Of a DNA stretch of 64,000 nucleotides, positions 3-18,380 are shown one piece after another. The DNA is from Aurantiacibacter rhizosphaerae. Lineage in GTDB: Bacteria > Pseudomonadota > Alphaproteobacteria > Sphingomonadales > Sphingomonadaceae. The stretch covers positions 558,001-622,000 of the forward strand of contig NZ_WUBR01000001.1 in assembly GCF_009807005.1 (NCBI RefSeq), read 5' to 3'. The notes beneath the pieces were generated by a model. That model worked only from the letters and a program-made list of their open reading frames with translations, was not told the DNA's origin and did not search any database. The translations under genes and the position numbers were made by a program. Numbering within the stretch: the first letter of the stretch is position 1; the number at the start of each line of letters is the position of its first letter.

Positions 3-2084
3 GTCCTAAAGTCCTTGTTCCTCGTCAAATATGTCAAGGGCTTCAAACCGTCGGTTCGCAACATCGCAATTCTGCTTTTGTCGGAATTTGAGGCGGACCA
101 GACGTTAATGCGCCGCAAGATTGAGGAAGCGCTAAGCCGTTTGGAGAGAGAAACCTATATCCAGCGCAACGGCGAGGTCTACGAGTTCCTGACCAATGAA
201 GAGAAGGATGTCGAAGCCGAAATCAAGGCTCTCGACATCGATCCGTCCGAGCTCTCGAAAGAACTCGAAACCCTCGCATTCGATACCATTTTACGTCACC
301 GTAAAATCAAACATCTCGCGACGACTAGCGAATACCCTTTCACCCGAAAGCTGGATGATCACGCTGTAGGACGCGAATACGAGTTGGCCATCAATCTGGT
401 TTCACCCTTGAGCGATGAAGTCGAAAGCCCTGATGGCATTCGAATGAAGACTATGTCTCGCGAAGAGCTTGCGGTTGCTATGAACCCCGATGCGACCTTC
501 GTTCGCGACCTGATCCTTTTCAAGCAAACTGACAAGTTCATCCGCCAGTCACGCAGCGGCTCACCGCAGCCAGGACGTGATCGCATTGTCGCGGAAAAAG
601 GGGAGCAAAATAGTCGCCGCTTAAAAGACCTCGAAATGCGGCTCCGCAAATTGATGGGAAGCGCTCGCCTGTTCGTTAGAGGTGACGAACTCGAGATCGG
701 CGGTGAAGATGCTCAAGAGCGCATCGCCAAGGCGTTCCAATCGCTGGTCGATAAGGTTTACACCAATCTCCCGATGCTGCGCGGTGTTAGCTATACCGAG
801 GCCGATATCAACAAAGCGGTGCAAGCTGAAAGTGGGCTCTTTGGATCTGACGACACAGGGATCAATGAGGCCGAGCAAGACGTCCTCAGCTTCATCAATG
901 CGCAGGCACGCAACGGTGTAAAAGTCTCCGTCAAATATCTGGCTGATCGGTTCACGTCCAAACCCTACGGCTGGCCAATAACCGCAGTCCTTTGCCTTGC
1001 AGGTAGCCTGGTCGCGAGGGGCAAGATCGAAGCGCGACTGGACAGCGCTGTGAAGGAGGGACTGGATCTCGCCAAGGCGTTGAACAACAGCCACGCGCTT
1101 CCGAACATTTTGCTCACCCCACAAACGGAATTCACTGCCGCCGAAATTCGGCGAGCTAAGGAGCTCTATCAGGAACTCTTTGCTCACCCCTCCTCGGGAA
1201 CCGACGCGCGCAGTTTGGGTGCAGAATGGACTGCAAGCATTGATGTGCTTGAAGCCGAGGTGGACGAACTTGTTCGCCAATCGCACCGCTACCCGTTCCT
1301 GACTTCGCTCGAGCCACTCAATGAGCTGCTGCGGAGCATGAAAGGCAAACCGGCGAACTGGTATATTTCAGAGGCGCCTAAGCGCGAGGATGACCTTCTG
1401 AACGCGAAGGAGGATATCCTCGACAAGGTGAAGTCCTTCATGGGCGGCGCACAAAAGGACATCTACGACGACGCCCGCGATATGCTCGCCGGCCAATCTG
1501 CCAACATCGACTATGTCGATCCTGATGCTGGTGCAAAGCTGAGTGCCGCATTGGAGGATCCGAACTGTTTCAAAGGATCGACGATCCAGAACATCAAGTC
1601 CGATCTTTTTGATCTGAAAAACAAGGTCGAACTCAAGGTGCTTGAGGAGCGCAAAGCTGTCATCGCAGAAGTCGAAGACGTTTCAGCGAAGATCGCTCAA
1701 ATGCCGGACTTCCAGGCGCTCGATACTGACCAACAGGCGCGCATCACCGCGCGCATTGATAGCCACAAAGAAGGCCTCGATACGGTCACTTTGATTCCCG
1801 TACTGCGCGATCGCGCCAATGGTGCACGCACCAACCTGCTATCAGATGTTGTCACTGAATTAGATCGTCTCGCGCGCCCAGCACCGGCGACTCAGCCGCA
1901 GCCAGGCCAATCCGACGGGCCAGCGCCCGCACCGCAGGCTCCCACAACGATCCTTGCCTCGCAGTTGAAGGTCGCAGCCCCGAAAACGCTGTTGACCGAT
2001 GAGACCGACGTTGATGAGTACCTTGATGCGATGAAAAGTGCCCTGCTGAACGAAATCCGAGCAGGCAAAAAGGTGATCGTCTAG
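3..2084 (+). CDS. brxC: BREX P-loop protein BrxC, C-terminal part (5' end outside window)
   Basis: The reading frame is open to the left edge, so the gene is cut there. About 693 residues of a protein that is usually near 1200 residues are visible, and the N-terminal P-loop ATPase part is missing. The visible part is largely helical and charged (coiled-coil-like stretches around the middle and before residue 600) and ends with a Pro/Ala-rich linker and a short conserved tail. BrxC is an ATPase of the BREX phage-exclusion complex. Identity rests on the similarity of its opening segment (SLFLVKYVKGFKPSVRNIAI) to remembered BrxC proteins and on its place before pglX, pglZ and brxL. brxA and brxB are expected to the left. 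The TAG stop shares its G with the next start codon. Confidence 0.88.
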   Translation, partial: VLKSLFLVKYVKGFKPSVRNIAILLLSEFEADQTLMRRKIEEALSRLERETYIQRNGEVYEFLTNEEKDVEAEIKALDIDPSELSKELETLAFDTILRHRKIKHLATTSEYPFTRKLDDHAVGREYELAINLVSPLSDEVESPDGIRMKTMSREELAVAMNPDATFVRDLILFKQTDKFIRQSRSGSPQPGRDRIVAEKGEQNSRRLKDLEMRLRKLMGSARLFVRGDELEIGGEDAQERIAKAFQSLVDKVYTNLPMLRGVSYTEADINKAVQAESGLFGSDDTGINEAEQDVLSFINAQARNGVKVSVKYLADRFTSKPYGWPITAVLCLAGSLVARGKIEARLDSAVKEGLDLAKALNNSHALPNILLTPQTEFTAAEIRRAKELYQELFAHPSSGTDARSLGAEWTASIDVLEAEVDELVRQSHRYPFLTSLEPLNELLRSMKGKPANWYISEAPKREDDLLNAKEDILDKVKSFMGGAQKDIYDDARDMLAGQSANIDYVDPDAGAKLSAALEDPNCFKGSTIQNIKSDLFDLKNKVELKVLEERKAVIAEVEDVSAKIAQMPDFQALDTDQQARITARIDSHKEGLDTVTLIPVLRDRANGARTNLLSDVVTELDRLARPAPATQPQPGQSDGPAPAPQAPTTILASQLKVAAPKTLLTDETDVDEYLDAMKSALLNEIRAGKKVIV

Positions 2085-3274
2085 TGATAGCCAATCTTGA
2101 ATTCGAGAACTTTGCCGTATTCGAACACCTGGACCTTTCTCTTTCCCCTCGGGTCAATGTTGTCATTGGATCAAACGGGACTGGGAAAACACTTCTATTG
2201 AAGGCTATCTATGGCTTGGGCCTTATGGCCGACGGTCAGTATCCTGATCGCTCCGACGACGGATTTGTGGCATCTGCATCGGGCAAATTTCTGCGCATAT
2301 TTTCAACTGAGGAAGATAGAGTTGGGACCCTTTCATCCAAAGGGATACAATCGCAGACTCGGCTGCGACTGGTGAGCGCTGATGGATCCGCCACGGAAGT
2401 GACTTTCGGCGCGAGGTCTCAGTATATGAATTTTTCCGCCGACACTGTGACACCGAAGTCTGCAAACACGCCGGTCTACATTCCGACGAAAGAAGTGCTT
2501 TCCTTAGTTCGTGGCATTCGCCACCCGAAACATGATCGCGCCACTGTCGAGATGATATTCGATGATGGCTATCTGAACCTTGCAGAACTTCTCGTGAAGC
2601 CCGGCTTCGACGAGAAGACATCTGATCTCCTCGAAGATCCAAGACTCTCTAATGTGATCCGCGATCTGGTTGCTCTTGTAGGAGGGCGATATCGCGAAAA
2701 CAATGACGGTGGGTTCGGGTTTCAGCCCGGACAATATGAAGAACGGGCCCAGGCTACTACGGACGGCGGTGAGGCGAAATCTAGAGCTCAAATCGCAAAG
2801 GCATATCAAGACTCGACCGAGACCAGATTTGTCTCAACCGACGTCGAGGGATTTCCCACTGGAATGACCGCTGAAGGATATCGAAAAATCGGTGTTCTTC
2901 ATCGCTTGCTGTGCAACGGATCTATTAACCCAGGCAACACAGGGACCCTTCTTTGGGATGAGCCCGAGTCGAACCTGAATCCAAAACTGATGAAAAAGTT
3001 GGTTCAGGTGCTATTGGAACTCTCCCGAAACGGGCAGCAAATCATTCTCGCTACCCACGACTATGTCCTGTTGAAGTGGCTAGACCTTCTTATGGACGAA
3101 GGGAAAGAAGACCATATCCGTTTTCACGCTATTTATCAGGACCCTGACACACAGAAAATGAGCGTCGAAAGCGCGGATAGCTATGCGCTCATTTCCAAGA
3201 CGGCCATATCGGACACCTTCGCGGAGCTATTTGATGAGGACATGGCTCGCGCGCTCGAGGTTACGAACACATGA
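2084..3274 (+). CDS. AAA/ABC-type ATPase (RecF/OLD-like) nested in the BREX operon
   Basis: The 396-residue protein has a Walker A motif GSNGTGKT at residues 29-36, a Walker B in LLWDEPESNLNP (about 288-299), and an H-loop-like LATHD shortly after (about 323). This is the layout of SMC/RecF/OLD-type ATPases (AAA_21-like). The GTG start overlaps the brxC stop in TAGTG, and its stop overlaps the next gene in ATGA, so translation is probably coupled. It is not one of the six core BREX type 1 genes. With the next gene it forms an ATPase plus nuclease pair, reminiscent of two-gene systems such as PARIS, Septu or OLD-like modules. Family assignment beyond ATPase is inference. Confidence 0.8.
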   Translation: MIANLEFENFAVFEHLDLSLSPRVNVVIGSNGTGKTLLLKAIYGLGLMADGQYPDRSDDGFVASASGKFLRIFSTEEDRVGTLSSKGIQSQTRLRLVSADGSATEVTFGARSQYMNFSADTVTPKSANTPVYIPTKEVLSLVRGIRHPKHDRATVEMIFDDGYLNLAELLVKPGFDEKTSDLLEDPRLSNVIRDLVALVGGRYRENNDGGFGFQPGQYEERAQATTDGGEAKSRAQIAKAYQDSTETRFVSTDVEGFPTGMTAEGYRKIGVLHRLLCNGSINPGNTGTLLWDEPESNLNPKLMKKLVQVLLELSRNGQQIILATHDYVLLKWLDLLMDEGKEDHIRFHAIYQDPDTQKMSVESADSYALISKTAISDTFAELFDEDMARALEVTNT

Positions 3275-3822
3275 AGCTGTATAAAGCCGAGGAAAATGCT
3301 GATCTCGAATTTTCTTTTCCAGATGAAGCGAAATGGGATGAACTTGACAAGCAGGGGGTGAAGCTCCCGGTTCAAATGAAATTTGTCGATCTCGTTATCG
3401 AACGAGAGAACGACATTTTGCTTGTTGAAATCAAGGATCCTTCGAACAAGAGAACCCCAGCGGATGAGCGCGCAAGATATTTCAAGAGGCTCTCGGACAA
3501 TTCAATCTTAACTCAGGAATTAACGCCGAAAGCACGCAGTTCATACACGTTTTTGCACTTGATGGAGCGCGACACGAAACCGTTCAAATATGTCGTGCTC
3601 ATCGGTCTAGATGCGTACGATCCGTCTCAGCAGAAGGCCTTGCTTACAGGATTCAAAGATCGCCTTCTGGCAGACATTCGCTGTGAAACAGACACTCCCT
3701 GGCGGCGGCAACACATAGCTGACTGCGTTGTGATGTCCGTCGATGTTTGGAACAAAACATTCGTCGATTGGCCTGTAGCCCGAGTTGCCGAAGTGGCTCC
3801 TATTGCGGAGGTCGGAGCCTGA
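3271..3822 (+). CDS. Predicted small PD-(D/E)XK-type nuclease, partner of the upstream ATPase
   Basis: I do not recognise a named family for this 183-residue protein. It carries a compact motif FVDLVIERENDILLVEIKDP, with D40, E53 and K55 spaced like the D...ExK core of PD-(D/E)XK nucleases, set in alternating hydrophobic beta-like stretches. The start overlaps the ATPase stop (ATGA) and its own stop overlaps the pglX start (TGATG). The likely role is the effector or DNA-cleaving subunit working with the ATPase. The nuclease call rests on the motif alone. An alternative is a structural protein that has kept the fold. Confidence 0.6.
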   Translation: MKLYKAEENADLEFSFPDEAKWDELDKQGVKLPVQMKFVDLVIERENDILLVEIKDPSNKRTPADERARYFKRLSDNSILTQELTPKARSSYTFLHLMERDTKPFKYVVLIGLDAYDPSQQKALLTGFKDRLLADIRCETDTPWRRQHIADCVVMSVDVWNKTFVDWPVARVAEVAPIAEVGA

Positions 3823-6800
3823 TGGATACCACAAAGCTCAGGAAATTTGCTCAATTTGCGCGGAGTACCTTGATTGATCAAGTTGCCGCAAGGCTGGAAT
3901 CCGTCTTGAGCGACGGCTCGTCGGCTCGGCGTGAATACCCAAAAGCCTTCAAGAAGCTTGAGGCACTAGTTGGCAAACTCGGACGAGAGCAAGTTGTCGA
4001 AAAGGTCGCCTACACCTGGTTCAACCGCTTCACTGCTTTGCGGTACATGGATGTAAACGGTCTCTCCCCGGTTCGCGTTGTGTCTCCGTCCGTTGGTCAA
4101 TTTCAACCGGAAATACTCTCGGATGCGAAGTCGGGGAGTATCAACGAGCAAATCGTCCCCGAAATCACTAGAGAAAAGGTCCTTAGCCTATTGGATGGTC
4201 GCGCCTCTAGCCCTGACCCGCAGGGAGAGGCTTTCCGACTGCTTGTCGTTGCTGCATGCAACTATTGGCACGACGCTATGCCATTTATGTTCGAACGCAT
4301 CGACGATTACGCCGAGCTTTTAATGCCTTCGGACCTGCAGTCCAACGCTTCGATCCTTGCATACCTTCGTGAGGCAATGACACCTGACGTTTGTGAAGAC
4401 GTCGAGATCATTGGCTGGCTCTACCAGTTCTATATTTCAGAGAAGAAGGATCAGGTTTTTGCGGGCCTTAAGAAGAACCAGAAGATCACGGCCGAGAATA
4501 TCCCTGCCGCAACACAGCTGTTCACGCCGCATTGGATTGTCCGCTACCTGGTGGAGAACTCGCTGGGACGGCTCTGGCTACTGAACAATCCGCAAAGCGG
4601 GCTGGCGGCCAAGATGGACTACTACATCGCGCCAGAAGAGCCCGAGACGGATTTCCTGCGTATCACCAAGCCCGAAGAGATCCGCATCTGCGATCCGGCG
4701 GTGGGCTCGGGGCACATGCTGACCTATGCCTTTGACCTGCTCTACGCCATCTACGAGGAAGAAGGATACGATCCGACCGAGATCCCCGAACTAATTCTCA
4801 AGCATAATCTGACCGGGGTTGAGATTGACGACCGCGCAGGCGCGCTGGCGGCCTTTGCGCTGGCGATGAAGGCCGCGGGCAAGCTAGGTCGGCGGCGGTT
4901 CCTGCGGATGGAGCCGACGCCCAACATCTGCGTATTGCAAGAAAGTCGTTTCCAAATCAGCGAGTTCAACGACTTCCTTGCTGAACTAGGGTATGATCTC
5001 AACGTTGACCGAGTGGCTTATGGACTGTCGAATACTCCTCTGATCCTCGATGAATTGTGGCGCAGCGTCAGCCGCTATCTGAAGCATGCTGAGACGAAAG
5101 TGTTTGAGGATACCTTTGAAAACGCGGTTGATGAGTTCGATGACTCGATCGTTTGCGAGATCGGAATGTTTCAAGAGGCATCGCAAAACCCATTCTTGGC
5201 GGCACAGATCAAAGACACCCGCGCACAGCTTTTGTCCATTGCCGCATCCGATAGAAACGTCCGGGATCGAAAGAAGCTGGAGGCCGAGTTCGGGAAACGC
5301 GCGAAGTCATCCAACATCGCTGGGCGGCTGGCAAAGATTGGAAACTCATATGCCAAGCATAGGTCTGATGCGACTTATCGAATGGAGCTTGAGGCGCTGG
5401 TGGAGCGCGTTGAAGAGGCGAGCGGCGCACCCGAGGCTTACGCCCAACTGGAGCAGGTAGGCCAAAGCCTATCAAAAGCCATCGCTTTCCATAGTGCGCT
5501 TTGGGCGACGGTCCTGCAGTTCGCACAGGCCAAGAACTTCGGATCTCTGATTGTGCCGAAACTACGCGATCCGGCCAAGACGCTGCGGATTATAGAAGCA
5601 CGGGATTTCGGCGGCGACTTGCTGCTGAAAGAAGTGCAGGAGCGCTTAATCTCAGTGCTGCGAATGGCAGAGGCGCTGTCGTCTAAGTATCACGTGGTGG
5701 TGACCAACCCGCCTTATGCGAGCGCGACGGGACTAAACTCAAAGCTTTCCGCATTCGTGAAAGGCGAGTATCCAGATAGCAAAGCGGATCTCATGACATG
5801 TTTCATGGAACGCGCAGGTATCCTTACAGTGCCTTTGGGCTACTGGGGGATGATTAATTTGCCATCATGGATGTTCATCTCGTCGTTCGAGAAGTTACGT
5901 ATCAAACTATTGGAGAATTCGTCCATTAGTTCGCTCGTTCATTTGGGGCGGGGAATATTCGGCTCAGACTTCGGCACCGTCGCTTTTGTTGTGCGCGACG
6001 TGAAGCCCAATGGGCGCACGATCGGAGCCTTTCGCCGTCTTTTTGAACGCCATGTGCATGTTCGCACGCCAGAGCAAATTCGAAATCTTTTCTTGGAAAA
6101 GGATTTTGGCAAATTTTCGCGCCTGCAATCCCAACTTCAAAGAATTCCCGGAAATCCGATTGCCTACTGGGCAAGCGACAAGATAGTTGCCCTCTTTGAC
6201 GACCCCGAGACTTATTTGAGTAGAAGCTTAAACCTCAGAGAAGGCATCAATACAGGAGACAATGAGAGGTTCTTGAGGGTTTGGCACGAAGTGTCGGACT
6301 TATCATTCGACAGAAATATTTCAGATAATCCCATCGAAACGAAGTGGAAACGTCACCGTAAGGGAGGCCCGTTTCGAAAATGGTACGGGAACGGTGAGTT
6401 TGCGCTCAATTGGGGGAAGACTGGACAAGAAATCCATGCCTTTCACGATCTGCCGCTCGACTACCGGGGCGCTCCGATGCGAGGGAAACAGTTCTTTCTG
6501 AAGGAGGCAGCATCTTGGACTCGCGTAAGTTCTGGAGACTTCGCAATCCGACACTCTTACCCTGGAGAGACTTTCGATTCCACTGCCCCCTCAATATTCG
6601 GTGATCATCAAGATCTTTTGGTCGCAGAAGCGTTCCTGAATGGCCCAATCTCGCGTTTTCTCTTGGGTATCCTTAGCCAAACGATTGACTTCAGACTGAC
6701 TGGACTGGGTCGACTTCCATTGAAGCTGCCGACGGCATCGCGCCATGCAATTGCTTCGGCTACGGGAAAAATCATTGACCTCGCCCGCGTCGATTGGGAC

Positions 6801-7808
6801 GCCTACGAAACCTCCTGGGATTTCACCGCGCTCCCACTTCTCTCGCCCGATCATCGTGACGAGACGCTGGAGGACAGCTACACCACCCTCCGCGCCCATT
6901 GGCAGTCCATGACGGACGAGATGCAGGCCCTTGAGGAAGAGAACAACCGCATCTTCATCGACGCCTATGGTCTGCAAGACGAGTTGACCCCCGAGGTGCC
7001 GATCGAGGAGATCACCCTCACCTGCAACCCTGCCTATCGCTATGGCGTGAAGATCTCCGAGGACGACCGCGAGGTCCGCCTGCGCGCCGACACGATGGCC
7101 GAGTTCCTTAGCTACGCCGTGGGCTGCATGTTCGGACGCTACAGCCTCGACGCGCCGGGCCTGATCCTCGCCAATCAAGGCGAGACACTGGCCGGCTACC
7201 TCGACCGCGTGCCTGAACCGAGTTTCATGCCGGACGAAGACAACGTCATCCCTGTGCTGGACGAAAACTGGTTTCCCGATGACATCACCGAACGCTTCCG
7301 CCAGTTTCTGCGCTTGACCTTCGGCGAGGACCATTTCCGCGAGAACCTGAAGTTCATCGAGGACAGCCTGGGCAAGGACATCCGCAAATACTTCACCAAG
7401 GATTTCTATTCCGACCACGTAAAGCGCTACAAGAAGCGCCCGATCTACTGGATGGTCGCCTCTCCCAAAGGCACCTTCAACGCGCTAATTTACATGCACC
7501 GCTATCGGGGCGATACGGTGTCAGTCATCCTCAACGATTACCTGCGCGAGTTTATCACGAAGCTTGAGGGGGAGCGTACACGGTTAGAGAAGCTCTCCGA
7601 CGATCCTGCCGCTAGCCAAGGTCAGAAGACCAAAGCACTGAAGGATGCTGCCAAAGTCGCCAAGCAGATCGATGAGCTGAACGAATGGGAACGCGACGTG
7701 ATCTTCCCACTTGCGCAGCGCAAGATCGAGATCGATCTCGATGACGGGGTTAAAGCGAACTATCCGAAGTTCGGTTCTGCCCTGAAGAAGATCGCTGGGT
7801 TGAGCTGA
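3822..7808 (+). CDS. pglX: BREX adenine-specific DNA methyltransferase PglX
   Basis: PglX marks host DNA by N6-adenine methylation at a BREX-specific non-palindromic site and is needed for both protection and exclusion. The 1328-residue protein shows the SAM-binding motif DPAVGSGHML (about residues 291-300) and the catalytic NPPY (about 629-632) of gamma-type N6-adenine methyltransferases. The start chosen is the ATG at 3822, giving the typical opening MDTTKLRKFAQFARSTL. An in-frame start further upstream would lie inside the preceding gene. The middle-to-late part (roughly 5.7-6.75 kb), where the target-recognition region should lie, is visibly more AT-rich than the flanks. The stop overlaps pglZ in TGATG. 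Confidence 0.95.
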   Translation: MDTTKLRKFAQFARSTLIDQVAARLESVLSDGSSARREYPKAFKKLEALVGKLGREQVVEKVAYTWFNRFTALRYMDVNGLSPVRVVSPSVGQFQPEILSDAKSGSINEQIVPEITREKVLSLLDGRASSPDPQGEAFRLLVVAACNYWHDAMPFMFERIDDYAELLMPSDLQSNASILAYLREAMTPDVCEDVEIIGWLYQFYISEKKDQVFAGLKKNQKITAENIPAATQLFTPHWIVRYLVENSLGRLWLLNNPQSGLAAKMDYYIAPEEPETDFLRITKPEEIRICDPAVGSGHMLTYAFDLLYAIYEEEGYDPTEIPELILKHNLTGVEIDDRAGALAAFALAMKAAGKLGRRRFLRMEPTPNICVLQESRFQISEFNDFLAELGYDLNVDRVAYGLSNTPLILDELWRSVSRYLKHAETKVFEDTFENAVDEFDDSIVCEIGMFQEASQNPFLAAQIKDTRAQLLSIAASDRNVRDRKKLEAEFGKRAKSSNIAGRLAKIGNSYAKHRSDATYRMELEALVERVEEASGAPEAYAQLEQVGQSLSKAIAFHSALWATVLQFAQAKNFGSLIVPKLRDPAKTLRIIEARDFGGDLLLKEVQERLISVLRMAEALSSKYHVVVTNPPYASATGLNSKLSAFVKGEYPDSKADLMTCFMERAGILTVPLGYWGMINLPSWMFISSFEKLRIKLLENSSISSLVHLGRGIFGSDFGTVAFVVRDVKPNGRTIGAFRRLFERHVHVRTPEQIRNLFLEKDFGKFSRLQSQLQRIPGNPIAYWASDKIVALFDDPETYLSRSLNLREGINTGDNERFLRVWHEVSDLSFDRNISDNPIETKWKRHRKGGPFRKWYGNGEFALNWGKTGQEIHAFHDLPLDYRGAPMRGKQFFLKEAASWTRVSSGDFAIRHSYPGETFDSTAPSIFGDHQDLLVAEAFLNGPISRFLLGILSQTIDFRLTGLGRLPLKLPTASRHAIASATGKIIDLARVDWDAYETSWDFTALPLLSPDHRDETLEDSYTTLRAHWQSMTDEMQALEEENNRIFIDAYGLQDELTPEVPIEEITLTCNPAYRYGVKISEDDREVRLRADTMAEFLSYAVGCMFGRYSLDAPGLILANQGETLAGYLDRVPEPSFMPDEDNVIPVLDENWFPDDITERFRQFLRLTFGEDHFRENLKFIEDSLGKDIRKYFTKDFYSDHVKRYKKRPIYWMVASPKGTFNALIYMHRYRGDTVSVILNDYLREFITKLEGERTRLEKLSDDPAASQGQKTKALKDAAKVAKQIDELNEWERDVIFPLAQRKIEIDLDDGVKANYPKFGSALKKIAGLS

Positions 7809-10303
7809 TGTCAGACCGTATCGAAACGGGCCTTAAGCTGCTCTTCGACGAGCACCGGATAGTGTTCTGGTACGATGCAGCGCGCGACATGCGGGGTGAA
7901 TTTGACGCTGTTGATCTGCCAGACGTGCAGAAGGTCGAAATCACGAACAACGAATTCGGTCTGAAATACCGGATGCTGCGGCAAGAGCCTCGCCAGAAGT
8001 TTCTGGTGTTTCACGATGGGCCCGCGCCTGAAATGGCCGACAATTGGCTGCTGGATCTGTATTTCGCCGGTGGTGTGTTCAAAGCCGATCAGGCGGCAAT
8101 CTGGCTTGCGGAACTGGGCCTGCCGCTGCAGTTTGAAGACGTGGTGCGCGACCATATGGAGTTTTACCGCTCCAAAGTTCGCATCGAAGCGCTGAAGCAG
8201 TCGGTCACTCCTTCAGACACAAAGAGCGAAGTGTTACGCCGTATGCTCGCCGTATGCGCAGGTGCTCAGGGTGCCTTGGATACGGTCATCGAGGAGCTGC
8301 TGGCAGAGCTCGCAGACGATCGTCACGACGCTATGCGCCTGATTGAACGCTCCGGCCTGACAGAGTTCTTCTGGAAGCAGGTTGAGAATGCCTACGGTTA
8401 TCTAAGCGAAGAGCCCGATTTCGAAGACTTCGCGATAACACTGTTCCAGTCCTGTTATGCCCGCGCTCTAGGTGACGATGGCAAGCTGAATGGCGAGGCC
8501 CTGCTTGTTTTCCGCCGCTGGAAGAACAATCGCCTATGGTCAACCGCATTTGAAACGCTGAGCGGTAAGTATCAGGACCTCCTGAAAATCCCTGAGGATG
8601 TCCAAAACCGCGACATCAAGATTTTAGGTGCGATTGATCACTTCGAGGAAATAGATCGCCATATCATCCGCTCTCTCGTTCGTGAGATGGCAAGTCAGAC
8701 GGTGTCATCAGCTGAGGTATTGAAAGCTGTTCGGGAGCGGAGACAAAGCCATTGGTATCCGACCTACGAGGATATCTACCAGGCCATCGGCTATGCCACG
8801 GAATTCCAGCAGGCCTTTGCTGAGGCAAACTTGACAATGACCTCCCCCGCTGAGGGTGTGAAGCGCTATGTTTCCCACTGGTTCAAGATCGACCAACTCT
8901 ACCGCAAATTCATCTATCATATGCAAAAGAGCGGCCAAGCCTCGCTCCTCAGCGCGCTCTTCGAGAGCGTCGAAAACCGGTATACGACTAATTTCCTTCA
9001 GGCTGTGAACGATGCTTGGCAAGACCAGATTGCTGAGCTCAACCACTGGAAGATCTCGGACTTCGCGCACCAGACCAGCTTCTACATGGACCAGGCCGCA
9101 GAATTCCGCCGCCGAGATCAGAAGGTGGTGGTGATTATCTCGGACGCCTTGCGCTATGAGATTGCAGAAGAAGCCCTGCGCGAAATCCGCAAACTGAACA
9201 GGTTCGACGCCGAGCTCGAACCGATGATTTCTGCTCTGCCCAGCTACACGCAGCTTGGCATGGCGGCGCTCTTACCAAACAAGGATCTAACGCTGGAAGC
9301 GGACGCAAGTGTGTCTTCTTTCGGCCTACCCACTCAGGGAACCGTCAATCGCGAAAAGGTTCTGGGAATGGGACGCTCGGGCGATCGAGCCAAAGCCATG
9401 AAAGCTGATGATTTTATGAGCTTGAAAGCGGATCAGGGCAAAGAGATCTTCCGCGATCATGACATTCTTTATCTTTATCACAACCGGGTCGACAACATTG
9501 GCGATAAGCTAGCCACTGAGGAGCACACGGCCGAAGCTGCCCAGGACGCCATCGAGGATCTGACCAAGCTTGTCCGCAAACTCACGACAGCCAACTTCTC
9601 GAACATCTTGGTGACGGCAGATCACGGCTTTATCTATCAACACCGCGCCTTGGATGAGACAGAATTTTCGATCGCGGTCCCAGCGGGCGCTGAAATTCTC
9701 GTCAAAAACCGCCGGTTCATTATCGGCCGCGATCTTGATGAGACTTCAGGTATGAAGAAGTTCTCTTCAGCCGACCTAGGACTGGCAGGGGACTTGGATG
9801 TGCTTTTGCCAAACTCCATCAATCGTATGCGCGTCAAAGGATCGGGCAGTCGGTTTGTGCATGGCGGAGCGACACTTCAGGAAATCGTCATTCCTGTGAT
9901 CCGTGTCGGGAAGAAACGCGACGCAGATGTCGAGAAGGTTGAAGTTCAGATCATTGTTGCCGGAAAGAGTTTAATTTCGTCCGGACAAACTTCGGTCACT
10001 CTCTATCAGGCTCAGCCCGTCTCAGAAAAGCAGCAGCAACGGGACCTTCTTGCTGGCATTTACGCCTCGGACGGCACACTCATCTCTGATGAGCATGCTC
10101 TCACCTTCGACTACACTTCGCAAAATGCACGCGAACGCGAGCTGCCACTCAAGTTCCTTCTTTCCCGGGACGCGGACCGCTTCAACAATCAAGACGTTCT
10201 GCTCAAGCTTCGCGAGCGCGTCGGCAAGACAAGCCATTATGAAGATTACACAAGTCACCGCTTCCAATTGCGCCGTGGCATATCGACAGATTTCGACTTT
10301 TAG
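7808..10303 (+). CDS. pglZ: BREX alkaline-phosphatase-superfamily protein PglZ
   Basis: This 831-residue protein has the usual length for BREX type 1 PglZ. The phosphatase-superfamily core is seen as VVVIISDALRYEIAEE (about 440-456), with the metal-binding Asp, and ILVTADHGF (about 599-607), with the second metal-binding Asp-His. PglZ is an obligatory BREX component and interacts with PglX; its exact reaction is not settled. It is translationally coupled to pglX (TGATG) and followed after 8 bases by brxL. Confidence 0.94.
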   Translation: MSDRIETGLKLLFDEHRIVFWYDAARDMRGEFDAVDLPDVQKVEITNNEFGLKYRMLRQEPRQKFLVFHDGPAPEMADNWLLDLYFAGGVFKADQAAIWLAELGLPLQFEDVVRDHMEFYRSKVRIEALKQSVTPSDTKSEVLRRMLAVCAGAQGALDTVIEELLAELADDRHDAMRLIERSGLTEFFWKQVENAYGYLSEEPDFEDFAITLFQSCYARALGDDGKLNGEALLVFRRWKNNRLWSTAFETLSGKYQDLLKIPEDVQNRDIKILGAIDHFEEIDRHIIRSLVREMASQTVSSAEVLKAVRERRQSHWYPTYEDIYQAIGYATEFQQAFAEANLTMTSPAEGVKRYVSHWFKIDQLYRKFIYHMQKSGQASLLSALFESVENRYTTNFLQAVNDAWQDQIAELNHWKISDFAHQTSFYMDQAAEFRRRDQKVVVIISDALRYEIAEEALREIRKLNRFDAELEPMISALPSYTQLGMAALLPNKDLTLEADASVSSFGLPTQGTVNREKVLGMGRSGDRAKAMKADDFMSLKADQGKEIFRDHDILYLYHNRVDNIGDKLATEEHTAEAAQDAIEDLTKLVRKLTTANFSNILVTADHGFIYQHRALDETEFSIAVPAGAEILVKNRRFIIGRDLDETSGMKKFSSADLGLAGDLDVLLPNSINRMRVKGSGSRFVHGGATLQEIVIPVIRVGKKRDADVEKVEVQIIVAGKSLISSGQTSVTLYQAQPVSEKQQQRDLLAGIYASDGTLISDEHALTFDYTSQNARERELPLKFLLSRDADRFNNQDVLLKLRERVGKTSHYEDYTSHRFQLRRGISTDFDF

Positions 10304-10311
10304 GGACACTC

Positions 10312-12387
10312 ATGAGCGCACTTGACGATAAGATTAACGAGCATTTCGCAGGCTATGTGGTCCGCAAAGACCTCGTGAAAGCGGTCAAGGGCAACGCAAT
10401 CGTCCCAACGTATGTCCTTGAGTATCTGCTCGGCCAATACTGTGCGACTGACGATGAAGCCTCGATCGATAGTGGGATCGATACGGTCAAAGATATACTC
10501 AAGAAGCACTACGTTCACAGAAGTGAAGCGGGCCTGATCCAGTCGACGATCAAGGAGAAAGGACGCTACAAGGTCATCGACCAGATAAGCGTCTCTTTGA
10601 ACGAAAAGACAGACAGCTACGAAGCGACCTTCGACAACCTGGGCATCAAGAAGGTCGCTGTAGACAGCAATACAGTCAAAGCGCATCCTAAGCTTCTGGT
10701 GACCGGCGTATGGTGCATTGCTGATGTCCAATACGAGTTTTCAGAGGACTCGCGGATTTCGCCGTGGGTGATCGAGACCATCAAACCCATCCAGATCGCA
10801 AAGGTCGATTACGAGGGCTACAAGCAAGCACGAGCGCAATTTTCCAAAGACGAGTGGATCGACCTCCTTATGCAGTCGATAGGCTTCAATCCTGAAGCCT
10901 TCGGTCGTCGAAGCAAGCTCCTGCAACTCATGCGGCTGATCCCCTTTGTCGAGCGCAACTATAACATCATTGAACTCGGTCCAAAGGGAACAGGCAAGTC
11001 CCACATCTATTCAGAATTCTCTCCGCACGGGCAGCTGATATCCGGCGGGGAAGTTACCATCCCAAAATTGTTCGTGAATAACGCGAACGGACGGATCGGC
11101 TTGGTAGGCTACTGGGATGTCGTGGCCTTCGATGAATTCGCTGGGCGCGAAAAGACCGCGAACAAAGCCTTGGTCGACATCATGAAGAACTACATGGCGA
11201 ACAAGACTTTCTCTCGCGGGATCAATCCCATGGGAGCCGAAGCAAGTTTCGCTTTCGTGGGGAACACAGACCACAATGTGCCATTCATGCTTAAGAACAG
11301 CGACCTGTTCGAAGCTCTTCCCCCTCAGTTCCATGACTCGGCCTTTATCGACCGCCTTCACGCCTATCTTCCCGGATGGGAGATCGACGTAATTCGCAGT
11401 GAAATGTTCACCGCTGGATACGGCTTCATCGTCGACTACCTCGCCGAGATTCTTCGCCATTTGCGCCAGGAAGACTTCTCCAACCGGCCTGACTTGCACT
11501 TCAAGATCAGTGAGAAGATCTCTACCCGTGACCGTGATGCCGTCTACAAAACCATGTCTGGCTTTTTGAAAGTCATTTTCCCTGCCGGAGGTGAAGCAGC
11601 CGAAGATGTTGAAGAACTGTTGCAGCTCGCGCTCGAGAGTCGAAAGCGCGTAAAAGACCAACTGTTCCGGATCGATGCAACCTATCCAGAGGTCGATTTC
11701 TCTTACACTGGCCCCGACGGTGAAACACGTCGTGTGCAGACCGTTGAAGAACAAGAGTTCTCACAATTCTACTATCTGAAACCGGCCTTGGATCCCAAGC
11801 AGCAGGATGAAGCCAGCGATGCTGTCGTAAATGATGGGGCCGATAGCCGATCTGAACCGGCCCAGACGCCAGTTCCCAAAGGGCCTGCGAAGCCGGTCGC
11901 CGAAGAAGGTCATCACGTGTTTGCCGAAAACCGGAAGGGGATGAGCTATAATAAGCTCTTCGGGCCCTATCTGGAGGGAGCGTCGCGGATCGTCGTGACG
12001 GACCCTTACATTCGCTATTTCTACCAGATCAAAAACATGATGGAATTTGTCGAGATGGTCATTCAGCGCAAAGCGCTCGAGGACCAAGTGGCCATCCATC
12101 TCGTCACAGGGCCTGACGATGGCAACGTGCAAAAGCAGCGGGAGCTGCTCGATAGCATTGCAGAAGCATGCATCGGAACGGGCGTTGACTTCACTTGGGC
12201 ATTTGACAGTTCAGGGACTGGCCACTCGAGAGATATCGTCACGGACACTGGCTGGAAAATTGTTCTCGATCGAGGCCTCGATATCTTCCAGGCGCCGATG
12301 CGGCGGGACGGGTTTAGCCTTGGCGACCGTTTGCAAGAGCACCGCATGTTGAAGAACTTCTACGTGACCTATGTGCAGCAAGACTAG
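10312..12387 (+). CDS. brxL: BREX AAA+ protein BrxL with an atypical C-terminus
   Basis: The 691-residue protein opens with a typical BrxL N-terminal region and an AAA+ core: Walker A GPKGTGKS (about 223-230) and a Walker-B-like VVAFDEF (about 270). Canonical BrxL ends in a Lon-like protease domain. Here I see no Lon Ser-motif (DGPSAG-type). After an acidic, Pro-rich linker (about 500-540), the last 150 residues (GASRIVVTDPYIRYFYQ, then QVAIHLVTGPDD) look like the PLD-like MIT C-terminal (MITD1-type) domain. BrxL is required for BREX exclusion and acts as a DNA-loaded ring in studied systems. It starts 8 bases after pglZ. The BrxL name is secure from AAA+ core and context; the C-terminal domain call is tentative. 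Confidence 0.85.
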   Translation: MSALDDKINEHFAGYVVRKDLVKAVKGNAIVPTYVLEYLLGQYCATDDEASIDSGIDTVKDILKKHYVHRSEAGLIQSTIKEKGRYKVIDQISVSLNEKTDSYEATFDNLGIKKVAVDSNTVKAHPKLLVTGVWCIADVQYEFSEDSRISPWVIETIKPIQIAKVDYEGYKQARAQFSKDEWIDLLMQSIGFNPEAFGRRSKLLQLMRLIPFVERNYNIIELGPKGTGKSHIYSEFSPHGQLISGGEVTIPKLFVNNANGRIGLVGYWDVVAFDEFAGREKTANKALVDIMKNYMANKTFSRGINPMGAEASFAFVGNTDHNVPFMLKNSDLFEALPPQFHDSAFIDRLHAYLPGWEIDVIRSEMFTAGYGFIVDYLAEILRHLRQEDFSNRPDLHFKISEKISTRDRDAVYKTMSGFLKVIFPAGGEAAEDVEELLQLALESRKRVKDQLFRIDATYPEVDFSYTGPDGETRRVQTVEEQEFSQFYYLKPALDPKQQDEASDAVVNDGADSRSEPAQTPVPKGPAKPVAEEGHHVFAENRKGMSYNKLFGPYLEGASRIVVTDPYIRYFYQIKNMMEFVEMVIQRKALEDQVAIHLVTGPDDGNVQKQRELLDSIAEACIGTGVDFTWAFDSSGTGHSRDIVTDTGWKIVLDRGLDIFQAPMRRDGFSLGDRLQEHRMLKNFYVTYVQQD

Positions 12388-12422
12388 CTACAAAACTGCA
12401 CTAGCACTTGGAGGGAAAAACC

Positions 12423-13559
12423 TTGTTCCGCGTTGATTTGAACCAAAACCGATTGTCTCGACTTTCGCAAAAGCGGTTTTCTGATCTCAACCTCCGCGAA
12501 CGAGACCATTTGCAGGAGTGGCTGGCTAATCAACCAGATGCCCTCGGCGAGGAATTGCTGATAATTCAAAAAGAGTTCGATGGCTTCGACGAGACCCGCG
12601 AACGTTTAGATCTCTTGGCACTGGACAAGGACGGCAACCTCGTAGTCATTGAGAACAAACTCGATGACAGCGGACGAGACGTCACCTGGCAGGCGCTGAA
12701 GTACACAGCCTATGTCTCTGGCCTGACCAAGACGCAAATCGTCGATATCTACCAGCAATACCTCGACCGTTATGCAGGCGGGGGCAATGCTGCTGTGCGG
12801 ATATGCGAATTCATGGAAGTTGAGGAGCTGGAGGAAACTGTCCTCAATCCAGGCAATGACCAGCGAATGATCTTTATCGCGGCCAATTTCCGGCGCGAGG
12901 TCACGGCTACTGTTCTATGGCTTCTCGGCCGTGGCATCCGGGCGCAATGCTTCAAGGTGACCCCATTTTCGTTTGACGACGAGCTCATGGTCGACATCCA
13001 GCAGATTATACCGACGCCCGAGGCCGCCGATTTCATGATCGGGATGTCGAGCAAAGAAAATGAAGAAAAGGCCATCCAGAACACACAGAAAAAGCGGCAC
13101 AAGTTGCGCTTGGATTTCTGGGAAGCTGCGCTCGACCAATTGCGTGCCGACGGCGTTACTCTCTACCAGAACATCAGCCCGACCAAGGACCATTGGCTTA
13201 GTGCGGGATCCGGTACCCGTTCGTGTCCTTATCAGATGATCTTCTCGAGGGATGAAGCACGGGTCGAGATAAGCTTGCAGCGTTCTGAGGCCGCAGAGAA
13301 CAAATGGCTGTTTGATCAGCTATATGGACAGAGAGAAGCGATCGAGGCTGCATTTGGAGCCCAACTCGATTGGCGGCGAATGGACGACAAGAAAGCCAGC
13401 CGCATCGTTTACGCTCATCCATTCGAGGGTTTCAACAAGGAAGCTTGGCCAGATATGATTGGCTGGCTTGCCGCTCATATCCAAAAACTGGAAGCGGCTT
13501 TCAGGGGACCGCTTTCCCGCCTAAACCCTCACGTCCGATCACAAGATGAGGTTGTGTAG
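12423..13559 (+). CDS. DUF4268 protein with NucS-like PD-(D/E)XK N-terminal domain
   Basis: The N-terminal half contains RLDLLALDKDGNLVVIENKL, with D63, E77 and K79 in the D...ExK arrangement of PD-(D/E)XK/NucS-like nucleases. The C-terminal half (KASRIVYAHPFEGFNKEAW and around) looks like DUF4268. The start chosen is the TTG at 12423, because GGAGG at 12410-12414 sits at ideal distance; a TTG at 12408 is less likely. The result is 378 residues. It lies 35 bases after brxL in the same direction and is probably an accessory defence or repair nuclease of the BREX island. The function is inferred. Confidence 0.75.
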   Translation: MFRVDLNQNRLSRLSQKRFSDLNLRERDHLQEWLANQPDALGEELLIIQKEFDGFDETRERLDLLALDKDGNLVVIENKLDDSGRDVTWQALKYTAYVSGLTKTQIVDIYQQYLDRYAGGGNAAVRICEFMEVEELEETVLNPGNDQRMIFIAANFRREVTATVLWLLGRGIRAQCFKVTPFSFDDELMVDIQQIIPTPEAADFMIGMSSKENEEKAIQNTQKKRHKLRLDFWEAALDQLRADGVTLYQNISPTKDHWLSAGSGTRSCPYQMIFSRDEARVEISLQRSEAAENKWLFDQLYGQREAIEAAFGAQLDWRRMDDKKASRIVYAHPFEGFNKEAWPDMIGWLAAHIQKLEAAFRGPLSRLNPHVRSQDEVV

Positions 13560-15668: not shown

Positions 15669-18380
15669 CTATCTATTGCTCCATTCTTTGACGTCGTCTG
15701 CAGCTTCCTCACTCGCGCCCGTGGCACCTTCCGTCTGGCGATCAAGATAAGTTCGCACGGTTCCAATTCTGCCACGACCCTGTCGGCGCACTCGTTCGAC
15801 CTCATCTGTGATGCCAGACCGATCAGGAGCGTCGGGCATTGAGGGACCACCCGAAGAGCTCACGGCGCCTCTTGCGCGTACCTGCCCAGCACTTCCGATT
15901 CCAGGGCGGCTGACCGGAGCGAAGTCCGGCAGCGAAAGGTCGGCTTCGATGTCGTCCTGAAGCCGATCAGCATAGCTCTCGACAAACCGTGATTGCAGCT
16001 GCTGACCCCGCGCGCTCATCTGGAACTCGATGTCATCGAAGCGCACCGGCCCGTAATAGTCGCGGTTGGCTTCCATCTCAGCCATGCCCCATTCGCGATA
16101 GGCCTGGCTCAGGTTCAGCGTGCCTGCGGCGCTGTTGGCCTCGTACCAGCTGGCCTGGTTCTCGAGGCGGCTGGCCATCTCTTCGGCCCGACGCGCCTCT
16201 CGCGTATAGCTCTCCGCTTCGGTCAGCGATCGGCTGAGACCCGACGAACTGGTCGATACTTGCGATACTGAGCTCGAGCTCGTCTCGCGCAAGAAACCTT
16301 CACGCGTGTTCGACCAGTTGCGACTGTCGGAAAGCTGCCGCAGCGTGCCCATGATCCTGACACGGTCTTCCGAGGCGATCCCGATATCGCTGTCGGTCCA
16401 CGACTGATTTCGGCCACCGCGGACGCCCGCCTGCGCGTTTAGTACTCCGCCTTCGGCCTTTGCTCCGGCTCCTGCTTCGCCGTTAAGGAACCAAGAAATA
16501 GTAATGTCGTCGGAGGCGCGCCGGGACAGGCCGAACTGCTGCTGGAGCGTCCTTGAGGCATTGTCGACTTCGCTGAATGCCGTGCCGATGCTGTCGTTCG
16601 TGCCGACGCCGCTGACCGTGTCGGAGCTCTGACCCTGACTGTAGGCGTTGCGGATCTCGCTGAACCGGGTGAGTGCAGAGCTCGTCGATTGCTGGGCGAG
16701 GTTGGCATAGGTCTCGCTCTGCGTCCGGCTCTGGCTCGCCATCGTTCCGAGGCGGCCGGTGAAGTCCTGCCCCAGTGTCGGCGTGAACGGATAGCTTGAA
16801 TTCGGGACAGCAGCGAACTCTCCATCGGGGAAGCTGGTGGTCTGCGTGCCGCTGTCGCGGAAACCACGCGTCTGCGTGGCGCCATAGGCGATGTTGGGTG
16901 CAAGATTGCCCTGCGCAAACTGGCGGGAAAACACCGTCGAATTGTCGATGTTCGAGTTGCCGAGCGAGACATTGCCGGTGCTCGCTTCGCGCGAGGCTTC
17001 CTCGGCCGCATTCTGGCTCGGGTTGAGATAGCTCGTTGCCTGGCCCGAGATCGCCAGCGCACCGCGCGCCACCCCGCCGGCAAGGAAGGGGATCGAGGCA
17101 ACGAGATAGCCCGCCAAGATACCGATATCGCTGTTGACGTCGCTCATGCCGGCAAAGGTCGCCAAGCTGAGGCCTGTGCTGCCGCCAGCGGCGGCGACAT
17201 CGCCCGCGCCCTTGAACATCAGGATCATGTGCAGGATGACGAAGAGCGGTCCCCACGCGGCAAGGTAGAAGAAGCCGGTGACGTAACCTCTCAATGCAAT
17301 GGGTCCGGTCCGCGGCATCAGGAACAGCGGAAACAGGACAGGGAATAGCGCGTAGAACACCACAGTCAGCACGACATTGAGGATCGGGACCCATTTCATC
17401 GCGTTGTGCGCGATCGAGGAATAGGTCCGCTCGGTCTGAATATCGGCCCGGGTCTGCGCGAATACGTCGATACTGCCGGTGCCGCTCGCCCCTGCAAAGC
17501 CGTACATGGCCTGGTTCATGGCATTGATCGTCAGCACCTGGCGGAAGATGTCGCTCGCGCTGCGCGAGATGCCGGTGAGATACTGGTAAGCAATCGGGAG
17601 GTCGGCCATGAGCTTGGCCTTGGCGAGCGCTTCGGCTTGTCGCGGATAGAGCTGGCGCCCCGCCACAAGCGTCATCTCGTCGATTAGGCTCGCCCACTGC
17701 CCTGACAGCGCGGTGTAGGCTTCGCGGCAGGTGATGATTGAGGCCGTCACGCTGTCGTCGGCCTGCCGGGTCAGGAATTTCTGCGCGCGAGCCGCGCTGC
17801 CCGGCGCGATCGTCGCCCAGATATCGTCGCTCTCGGACAGCTCCTTCATCGAGTAGCGGCCGAGCAGCAGATCGTAGAACACGCAATGCCGGACATGCTC
17901 ATCGAAGTTCGCAGCGAACTCCGGATCGGAAATGCGCAAGCTCCGCGTCGATTCGAGCAGCCGCGCGCCATAGATCATGCCGTTCTTCGAGTAGTTGAGG
18001 TCGTCCGGCAGGCCGAAGACGAGCTCGGCAGAGCGGGTCAGATAGTCCCCCGCCTGGCTGGTGAAGCTTGCCATCAGGGCGAGCCCGAGCGGGACATTGG
18101 CCACCGTTGCCGGTGCAAGGCTGGGATTGACCCGGTCGGTCACATGGACGTCCATGCGCGGCACCATCAGGCACATGTAAATGAGCGTCGCACCGAGGAA
18201 CCAGTTGAGCCAGGCACGCCAGTCCTGGTTGAACGCGACCACTATGACCGCGAGCATCATGCCCATCACCAGCGCGACCTGAATGAGGCTCTTGTAGCCG
18301 CCCGCACCGGTCCAGGCGGCAACGGCGTTGAGGACATTGACGATGTACTCGCCGCCGCCGACCGTGAAAATCTCGACCAT
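15669..18380 (-). CDS. traG: TraG-like mating-pair stabilisation and pilus assembly protein
   Basis: F-type TraG spans the inner membrane, with an N-terminal part needed for pilus assembly and a C-terminal part for mating-pair stabilisation and entry exclusion. The 903-residue protein is near the length of F TraG (938). The N-terminal half has several membrane spans (for example GYKSLIQVALVMGMMLAVIVV and WFLGATLIYMCLMV) and the C-terminal half is a long, polar, Ser/Gln-rich region with coiled-coil character. It is the last gene of the leftward transfer operon, 12 bases after traH. Confidence 0.9.
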   Translation of the reverse strand: MVEIFTVGGGEYIVNVLNAVAAWTGAGGYKSLIQVALVMGMMLAVIVVAFNQDWRAWLNWFLGATLIYMCLMVPRMDVHVTDRVNPSLAPATVANVPLGLALMASFTSQAGDYLTRSAELVFGLPDDLNYSKNGMIYGARLLESTRSLRISDPEFAANFDEHVRHCVFYDLLLGRYSMKELSESDDIWATIAPGSAARAQKFLTRQADDSVTASIITCREAYTALSGQWASLIDEMTLVAGRQLYPRQAEALAKAKLMADLPIAYQYLTGISRSASDIFRQVLTINAMNQAMYGFAGASGTGSIDVFAQTRADIQTERTYSSIAHNAMKWVPILNVVLTVVFYALFPVLFPLFLMPRTGPIALRGYVTGFFYLAAWGPLFVILHMILMFKGAGDVAAAGGSTGLSLATFAGMSDVNSDIGILAGYLVASIPFLAGGVARGALAISGQATSYLNPSQNAAEEASREASTGNVSLGNSNIDNSTVFSRQFAQGNLAPNIAYGATQTRGFRDSGTQTTSFPDGEFAAVPNSSYPFTPTLGQDFTGRLGTMASQSRTQSETYANLAQQSTSSALTRFSEIRNAYSQGQSSDTVSGVGTNDSIGTAFSEVDNASRTLQQQFGLSRRASDDITISWFLNGEAGAGAKAEGGVLNAQAGVRGGRNQSWTDSDIGIASEDRVRIMGTLRQLSDSRNWSNTREGFLRETSSSSVSQVSTSSSGLSRSLTEAESYTREARRAEEMASRLENQASWYEANSAAGTLNLSQAYREWGMAEMEANRDYYGPVRFDDIEFQMSARGQQLQSRFVESYADRLQDDIEADLSLPDFAPVSRPGIGSAGQVRARGAVSSSGGPSMPDAPDRSGITDEVERVRRQGRGRIGTVRTYLDRQTEGATGASEEAADDVKEWSNR

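What the first reader, a model, noticed from the sequence alone, without database searches (positions are those of the whole stretch)
2084..3822. ATPase plus PD-(D/E)XK nuclease pair nested inside a BREX operon
Two non-core genes lie between brxC and pglX: an ATPase (Walker A at residues 29-36, Walker B, H-loop) and a 183-residue protein with D40, E53 and K55 in a PD-(D/E)XK arrangement. All four junctions overlap (TAGTG, ATGA, TGATG), so the pair is translated as part of the operon. By eye the DNA is more AT-rich than later BREX parts. It could be an independent two-gene anti-phage module, or a restriction/alarm arm acting when BREX is inhibited.
Basis: partly seen in the sequence, partly recalled or inferred. 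Interest (0 to 1): 0.75.

Follow-up and report, generated by a model that had tools for sequence, protein, structure and literature searches.

The report
Swappable nuclease module inside BREX operon
Two extra genes, an ATPase and a probable nuclease, sit seamlessly inside a bacterial anti-virus operon as an optional add-on, and comparison with relatives suggests that the nuclease is repeatedly swapped together with the tail of the ATPase.

Summary
Between brxC and pglX lie an ABC-type ATPase (A, 396 aa) and a 183-aa protein (B) with D40/E53/K55, coupled by 1-4-nt overlaps. The pair is catalogued: A and B match PADLOC HEC-02A (1.4e-94) and HEC-02B (1.2e-71). A 2026 survey already describes OLD-ABC ATPase plus PD-(D/E)XK pairs in BREX as backup effectors. 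It is optional: in 10 of 10 pair-less relatives the brxC stop overlaps a pglX-like frame's ATG by one base. Relatives lie in BREX-2, a BREX-3-like and a type III RM operon, and alone. B's motif is conserved in 45 sequences, window included (D 43, E 45, K 44); fold searches agree only weakly. Not found in print in my searches: B has two types (24-32% identical) exchanged between similar backbones, at least six changes on the A tree, and A's last ~45 residues go with B (partial r 0.81 at 361-395, at most 0.27 before residue 346). L071 vs L004: BrxC 96.6%, B 31%. Best reading: sensor ATPase with an exchangeable cognate nuclease; trigger and substrate unknown.

The parts
3..2084 (+). brxC, 3' part (693 aa in window; the full gene begins about 1.4 kb upstream of the window, G000:C1:556566)
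   Evidence: PADLOC BrxC 1e-263, NCBIfam NF033441; full gene in L050, place
2084..3274 (+). gene A: ABC/SMC-like ATPase, HEC-02A relative (sensor/regulator candidate)
   Evidence: PDLC04213 HEC-02A 1.4e-94; AAA_21/AAA_15; model pLDDT 84.7, nearest folds PtuA (Septu) and Rad50
2168..2191 (+). Walker A of A (residues 29-36)
   Evidence: G29, N31, G34, K35 invariant in 40 aligned homologues
2948..2968 (+). Walker B of A (residues 289-295, LLWDEPE)
   Evidence: L290-E295 invariant in 40
3053..3058 (+). T324-H325 of A (H-loop)
   Evidence: invariant in 40
3104..3274 (+). A tail from about codon 341-347 on: strand 359-364 and last helix 374-394; exchanged together with B
   Evidence: DNA break point in relatives, co-variation with B, model
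3271..3822 (+). gene B: predicted PD-(D/E)XK nuclease, HEC-02B relative (effector candidate), type 1 allele
   Evidence: PDLC04220 HEC-02B 1.2e-71; model pLDDT 84.2
3388..3435 (+). D40 (3388-3390), E53 (3427-3429), K55 (3433-3435) of B
   Evidence: 43/45, 45/45, 44/45
3529..3531 (+). K87 of B, invariant lysine in the helix after the motif strand
   Evidence: 45/45; helix 78-97
3822..7808 (+). pglX, BREX-1 adenine methyltransferase
   Evidence: NF033452, 1352 bits
7808..10303 (+). pglZ type A
   Evidence: TIGR02687 3.4e-236
10312..12387 (+). brxL
   Evidence: TIGR02688 1.5e-182

Best explanation
The pair is a self-contained two-gene defence module of the HEC-02 kind that has entered a BREX-1 operon between brxC and pglX without breaking translational coupling. 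A is an ABC/SMC-like ATPase that most likely senses infection, perhaps the disabling of the host modification/BREX machinery. B is a PD-(D/E)XK-type nuclease that A holds in check and then releases or activates. The C-terminal helix of A is the likely docking element for B: A tail and B are exchanged as one cassette between otherwise similar, in the best case near-identical, operons. Shown by sequence: the genes, the coupling, optional presence, wide occurrence, conserved motif, cassette exchange and tail-B co-variation. Inferred: nuclease activity, tail-B contact, sensing, backup role. Unknown: trigger, and whether the substrate is DNA or RNA.
For: HEC-02A/B matches. Complete ABC motifs and PtuA/Rad50-like fold for A. 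D/E/K/K87 conservation in B. B-like ORF next to A in 45 of 47 loci. Empty sites: in 10 of 10 loci the brxC stop shares a base with the ATG of a pglX-like frame. Other homes: BREX-2, a BREX-3-like operon and a type III RM operon, alone. Exchange: 13 type-1 and 17 type-2 rows need 7 changes on the A-backbone tree, at least 6 forced by well-supported branches. L071 vs L004: BrxC 96.6%, PglZ 95.6%, BrxL 90.3%; A 90-100% in its first eight 40-residue windows, about half over the last 70 residues; B 31%; sharp DNA borders. The string TFAEL stands in 13 of 13 type-1 tails and 0 of 17 type-2 tails (tails printed). Partial Mantel r 0.85 for A 355-394 against B, 0 of 999 permutations. B is not tied to the PglX target-recognition region (partial r 0.13, 162 of 999; 16 loci), against a restriction enzyme that matches the methylation specificity.
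Against: No experiment. Fold support for the nuclease is weak: no match at E <= 0.001 in PDB or the viral library; Pfam gives window B only SduA_C 0.13 and SLFN_AlbA_2 0.26, and among 40 members NERD in 2 (best 0.018) and DpnII in 1 (0.027) beside unrelated single hits. Tail and B are neighbours, so co-inheritance could be plain linkage. Other parts also follow B a little: A 1-340 partial r 0.41 (4 of 999) and PglX 1-500 0.33 (16 of 999), given BrxC; A 300-339 0.12 (24 of 999). The B types are somewhat clustered on the A tree (shuffles as low: 9 and 24 of 500), and the tree warns of long branches among type-2 rows (L005, L026, L027, L029, L032). Outside BREX the tail rule is not clean: stand-alone L075 has a type-1-like B but a tail nearer type 2 (score 92 vs 76); L073 and L074 agree with the rule; L077 (B nearer type 1, tail nearer type 2) also disagrees, on weak scores. 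L078's B lacks the lysine.
Confidence: 0.58

Rival explanations
1. B is the missing restriction enzyme of this BREX: it cuts unmethylated DNA at the PglX site and A is its ATP-driven helper.
For: The pair lies next to the methyltransferase gene in BREX-1, BREX-2, a BREX-3-like and a type III RM operon.
Against: B type does not follow the PglX recognition region. Pairs exist with no recognised methyltransferase next door (neighbours mostly read by eye). Pair-less BREX-1 loci with pglX, pglZ and brxL exist: L067, L068, L081, L082, L085, L086, L087.
Confidence: 0.15
2. Co-exchange of the A tail and B is only linkage: the two B types diverged, and later crossovers can happen only in conserved DNA (A Walker B/H-loop region and pglX start), so the tail rides along without touching B.
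For: Break points lie just after the conserved Walker B/H-loop block and near the pglX start. Stand-alone L075 and, weakly, L077 mix types.
Against: Tail and B types agree in 30 of 30 BREX-embedded pairs on the tree, over at least six exchanges. In L071 vs L004 the last 70 residues of A are about half identical while the rest is 90-100%.
Confidence: 0.32
3. Toxin-antitoxin or other addiction unit that stabilises the BREX island rather than a phage sensor.
For: Two coupled genes, nuclease plus partner, on an island beside a conjugation-type gene (window 15669-18380, judged by eye).
Against: A has all ABC ATPase motifs and is closest in fold to PtuA of Septu; repeated embedding in defence operons.
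Confidence: 0.1
4. A constant structural part of this BREX-1 subtype.
For: Same slot in 17 loci with an undivided pglX, own included.
Against: Seamless empty sites in the 10 pair-less loci examined; genome G526 has both an empty and an occupied BREX-1.
Confidence: 0.02

Closest known systems
HEC-02 (Hma-embedded candidate 2, PADLOC-DB)
   Same: Both genes match the HEC-02A and HEC-02B profiles over nearly full length.
   Different: Embedded in BREX-1, not Hma. Exchange of tail plus B was not found described, but the preprint that defines HECs (Payne 2024, cited in PMC12988326) is not held, so it could not be read.
OLD-ABC + PD-(D/E)XK pairs in BREX (Rakesh & Krishnan 2026, PMC12839542; sections 17 and 35 read, plus word finds)
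   Same: Reports 594 taxa in which OLD-ABC ATPases pair with HNH, PD-(D/E)XK or PIN nucleases in BREX and related neighbourhoods, and proposes backup effectors.
   Different: In the sections read no such pair is followed into alleles; a word find in the main text gave 0 for 'swap', 'split' and 'HEC'. Whether this pair is in its supplement is not known.
PARIS (AriA/AriB)
   Same: ABC ATPase plus nuclease, sensor-effector logic (passages of PMC12409363); linked to BREX in PMC12839542.
   Different: AriB is a Toprim tRNase; B has a PD-(D/E)XK motif and no Toprim match. A matches AriA profiles far more weakly (1.5e-20) than HEC-02A.
Septu (PtuA/PtuB)
   Same: A's best PDB fold match is PtuA (E 2.0e-13).
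   Different: PtuB is an HNH nuclease (recalled; PDB titles of retron PtuA complexes name an HNH nuclease); B has no HNH match.

Membership tests
HEC-02 | A-type ATPase matching HEC-02A | tested here: met
   PDLC04213 1.4e-94, residues 1-392 of 396
HEC-02 | B-type protein matching HEC-02B directly downstream | tested here: met
   PDLC04220 1.2e-71, residues 2-174 of 183; ATGA overlap
HEC-02 | Anti-phage activity | not testable with these tools
   no bench data; PMC12988326 says several HECs (naming HEC-06) were active, HEC-02 is not named in the passages seen
PD-(D/E)XK nuclease superfamily | D ... E-x-K on adjacent strands | tested here: met
   D40 next to strand 41-44, E53 and K55 in strand 49-55 of the model; 43, 45, 44 of 45 sequences
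PD-(D/E)XK nuclease superfamily | Fold match to solved members | tested here: inconclusive
   none at E <= 0.001; N.BspD6I up to 0.84, EcoO109I 0.28, Hjc rows 0.13-0.33, among unrelated folds; viral library: a putative Holliday junction resolvase 0.80, an uncharacterised protein 0.87
PD-(D/E)XK nuclease superfamily | Metal-dependent cleavage | not testable with these tools
   -
PARIS | Toprim nuclease partner | tested here: not met
   no AriB or Toprim match for B in Pfam, PADLOC, NCBIfam at the limits used
Septu | HNH nuclease partner | tested here: not met
   no HNH or PtuB match for B at the limits used
BREX-1 host operon | brxA, brxB, brxC, pglX, pglZ, brxL in order | tested here: met
   profiles for brxC, pglX, pglZ, brxL; brxA and brxB by place and by matching genes annotated DUF1819 and DUF1788 in L005

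The most novel reading that the evidence does not exclude
BREX and other methylation-based defence operons carry a plug-in alarm module whose killing part is a swappable cassette: the ATPase body stays with the operon while its C-terminal docking helix plus the nuclease are traded by homologous recombination. In the best pair this lies alongside, but independently of, change in the target-recognition region of PglX, so that the operon has two separately changing faces, what it recognises and how it strikes.
Probability: 0.43. Interest if true: 0.75.

Novelty: new member of a known kind. Interest (0 to 1): 0.52.

Why it matters
It turns an unassigned gene pair into a testable sensor-effector module and gives a precise, cheap test: swap the last ~50 residues of the ATPase and see which nuclease it accepts. 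If the tail-nuclease coupling holds, defence modules can change effector without changing sensor, which would explain how backup effectors stay ahead of phage inhibitors, and it would give a natural rule for pairing ATPases with nucleases.

Tried and rejected
Constant BREX part: rejected by the empty sites. PARIS and Septu membership: rejected, no Toprim or HNH partner. B tied to the methylation specificity: partial Mantel test on 16 loci with an undivided pglX, not supported. Phage carriage: no B match at 1e-3 in 50,697 phage records. Natural A-B fusion that could be folded as one chain: none noticed among the loci listed, but not searched for systematically. PDB sequence search with the B profile: 2 chance-level hits. 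Viral fold library: no match at E <= 0.001. Exchange borders on the downstream side could not be seen in L016/L022 and L028/L023, and only late in L018/L025, because other genes follow B there.

Rows dropped before counts: L034 (no B recognised) and L035 (fragment of A) from the B counts; L033 (A interrupted) from the A tree; L069 and L072, copies of L012 and L013; the A tail of L076 was not used, its ORF overlaps B by 74 bases. L044 was left out of the profile alignments as a near-copy of L043. Trees used LG+G4 without the mixture model. The BrxC tree took 19 of the 30 pair-bearing BREX rows and 10 rows chosen for lacking the pair (L067, L068; plasmid hits H7-H14), so its ratio says nothing about frequency. 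Of the 10, L080 has no annotated pglX, pglZ or brxL after brxC and an IS nearby, L083 is unannotated and L084 lists no pglZ (the plasmid gene table is incomplete).
Full report
OBSERVATION. Junctions are brxC/A TAGTG, A/B ATGA, B/pglX TGATG; pglX/pglZ is TGATG too. GC is 50.6 and 48.6%; the seven other genes compared have 52.7-54.2%. The operon is brxA, brxB, brxC, A, B, pglX, pglZ, brxL, BREX-1 by NCBIfam, followed by a DUF4268 protein (Pfam; PADLOC PDC-S11). The window is G000:C1:558001-622000 of a 3.4-Mb genome.

WHAT THE PROTEINS ARE. A matches HEC-02A at 1.4e-94 and B matches HEC-02B at 1.2e-71. HEC stands for Hma-embedded candidate, from a 'guilt-by-embedding' survey (passages in PMC12988326; the defining preprint is not held). 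A carries Walker A, Walker B and H-loop, invariant in 40 homologues; its model (pLDDT 84.7) is nearest to PtuA of Septu and Rad50/SMC heads. B: in 45 sequences, the window's included, E53 and K87 are 45/45, K55 44/45 (R in L007), D40 43/45 (E in two). Its model (pLDDT 84.2) has E53/K55 on strand 49-55, D40 just before strand 41-44, and K87 in helix 78-97. Foldseek gives no PDB hit at E <= 0.001; nicking and restriction enzymes and Hjc resolvases are among the top rows (that these are PD-(D/E)XK folds is recalled), N.BspD6I with probability 0.84, but so are unrelated proteins such as Psy3-Csm2. So PD-(D/E)XK is likely, not proven.

HOW IT IS DISTRIBUTED. Forty-two loci of genome contigs, four plasmid loci, eight matches in 385 genomes of the same class, own included, and two more from the BrxC search (L070, L071) were looked at. 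A B-like ORF is next to A in 45 of 47 loci L004-L050. Homes: between brxC and an undivided pglX in 17 loci (L004, L005, L008-L014, L026, L027, L029, L030, L033, L050, L070, L071), and in L032 between weak brxC and pglX matches; after the N-terminal half of a divided pglX in 13 loci (L015-L025, L028, L031); between pglX and pglZ in L043; in BREX-2 after pglX in L007; after PglXI in L073, a BREX-3-like operon, and between a type III methyltransferase and a type III restriction gene in L078; and with no recognised defence neighbour in many others (most of those neighbours were read by eye, not searched).

EMPTY SITES. Ten related BREX-1 loci lack the pair in this slot: L067, L068 and plasmid loci L080-L087 (tblastn of A at 1e-15 matched four plasmids in all, none of these). 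In 10 of 10 the last base of the brxC stop is the first base of an ATG: eight open directly with MDTNALKKFAQ, the pglX start, and in L086 and L087 the frame reaches a similar MDTG start 14 codons on. Seven of the ten show pglX, pglZ and brxL (L067, L068, L081, L082, L085-L087). On the BrxC tree occupancy needs 3 changes, at least 2 forced (chosen sample). Genome G526 has both an empty (L068) and an occupied (L071) BREX-1. The pair is therefore optional and its insertion seamless.

THE EXCHANGE. B falls into a type like the window's (64-93% identical by blastp) and another 24-32% identical to it. On a tree of A residues 1-340 of 30 BREX-embedded pairs, 13 type-1 and 17 type-2 rows need 7 changes, at least 6 forced by starred branches, and none of 200 bootstrap trees needs only 1. 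DNA comparison shows the borders: in L071 vs L004, 60-nt windows are 82-100% in the brxC end and 87-100% in A codons 1-340, then 32-58% through A tail and B (72% in the window at B's end), and 82-100% for most of the pglX start. L011 vs L012, L010 vs L012, L070 vs L004 and L008 vs L014 show the same drop between more diverged flanks. In L015 vs L020 the flanks are 88-100% while A after its first 60 nt is only 43-85%, so whole pairs are exchanged as well. In L016/L022 and L028/L023 the downstream border is not visible, because other genes follow. In L071 vs L004 the other strongly diverged part of the proteins compared (BrxC, A, B, PglX, PglZ, BrxL) is the PglX recognition region: five 100-residue windows 36-78%, the other six 87-98%.

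TAIL-B COUPLING. Identity of the last 44 residues of A to the window's follows the B type: 70-89% for five type-1 and 32-36% for three type-2 loci among the window's nearer relatives, and, against L015, 69-81% vs 26-38% in the divided-pglX group. TFAEL stands in 13 of 13 type-1 tails and 0 of 17 type-2 tails. A partial Mantel scan over A, controlling for the rest of A, gives 0.81 at residues 361-395, 0.49 at 346-365, 0.27 at 331-350 and 0.17 or less elsewhere; block 355-394 gives 0.85 (0 of 999 permutations), control blocks 0.12 (300-339; 24 of 999), 0.05 (130-170; 191) and 0.03 (1-40; 291). Given BrxC distance on 16 loci: tail 0.92 (0 of 999), A 1-340 0.41 (4), PglX 1-500 0.33 (16), PglX 500-900 0.13 (162), PglX 900-1160 0.16 (126). 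The tail block is a strand plus the last helix 374-394 in the model. Linkage is a fair rival; outside BREX, L073 and L074 obey the rule, L075 and (weakly) L077 do not.

MECHANISM. By analogy with PARIS, whose AriA hexamer holds AriB and lets it go when phage proteins are sensed (passages of PMC12409363), A is taken as sensor/holder and B as effector. The pair lies next to a methyltransferase gene in the recognised host operons listed above; this suggests that it watches the modification machinery, as PrrC is recalled to do for a type I system. This step is inference. B does not follow the recognition region of PglX.

NOVELTY. The pair is a new member of HEC-02; pairs of this kind in BREX are in print as backup effectors (PMC12839542, section 35 read, section 17). 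That the A tail and B form an exchange unit was not found in the listings searched or by word find in PMC12839542; bioRxiv as a library and most subscription papers are not held, and the one preprint that matters most could not be read.

Noticed in passing
L015-L025, L028, L031 (pglX N half about 6150-8004; C half further down): pglX is divided into an N-terminal methyltransferase half (606 aa in L015) and a C-terminal half (595 aa), like HsdM/HsdS, with the pair and in some loci other modules between them. L031's contig ends before a second half and L018's cuts it.
   Followed up: partly
L015:9694-12714; L022:9697-13157: In the same slot as the pair, a UG5-nitrilase reverse transcriptase gene (L015) or a SIR2-HerA pair (L022): stacked known defence modules inside one BREX operon.
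   Followed up: partly
L009:9736-17185: Two pglX-like genes in tandem directly after B.
   Followed up: no
window 12408-13559: DUF4268 protein matching PADLOC candidate PDC-S11 (6.1e-177) directly after brxL; weak NucS (7.1e-5) and PDDEXK_4 (0.031) signals.
   Followed up: no
window 10312-12387: BrxL has a C-terminal MIT_C (phospholipase D-like) domain, 4.1e-42, which may be the BrxL-HKD fusion described in PMC12839542.
   Followed up: no
L003:9232-9867 (-): An S24-peptidase repressor-like gene lies upstream of brxA, where relatives L081, L082 and L084-L087 have a WYL-domain gene.
   Followed up: no
L033:6092-8471: A of Photobacterium sp. SKA34 is interrupted into two separate ORFs while B is open; left as it is.
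   Followed up: no
L079:8214-9287: Isolated BrxC fragment near a 903-aa ORF that begins like the 903-aa ORF at window 15669-18380: perhaps a decayed BREX at the same kind of island site.
   Followed up: no
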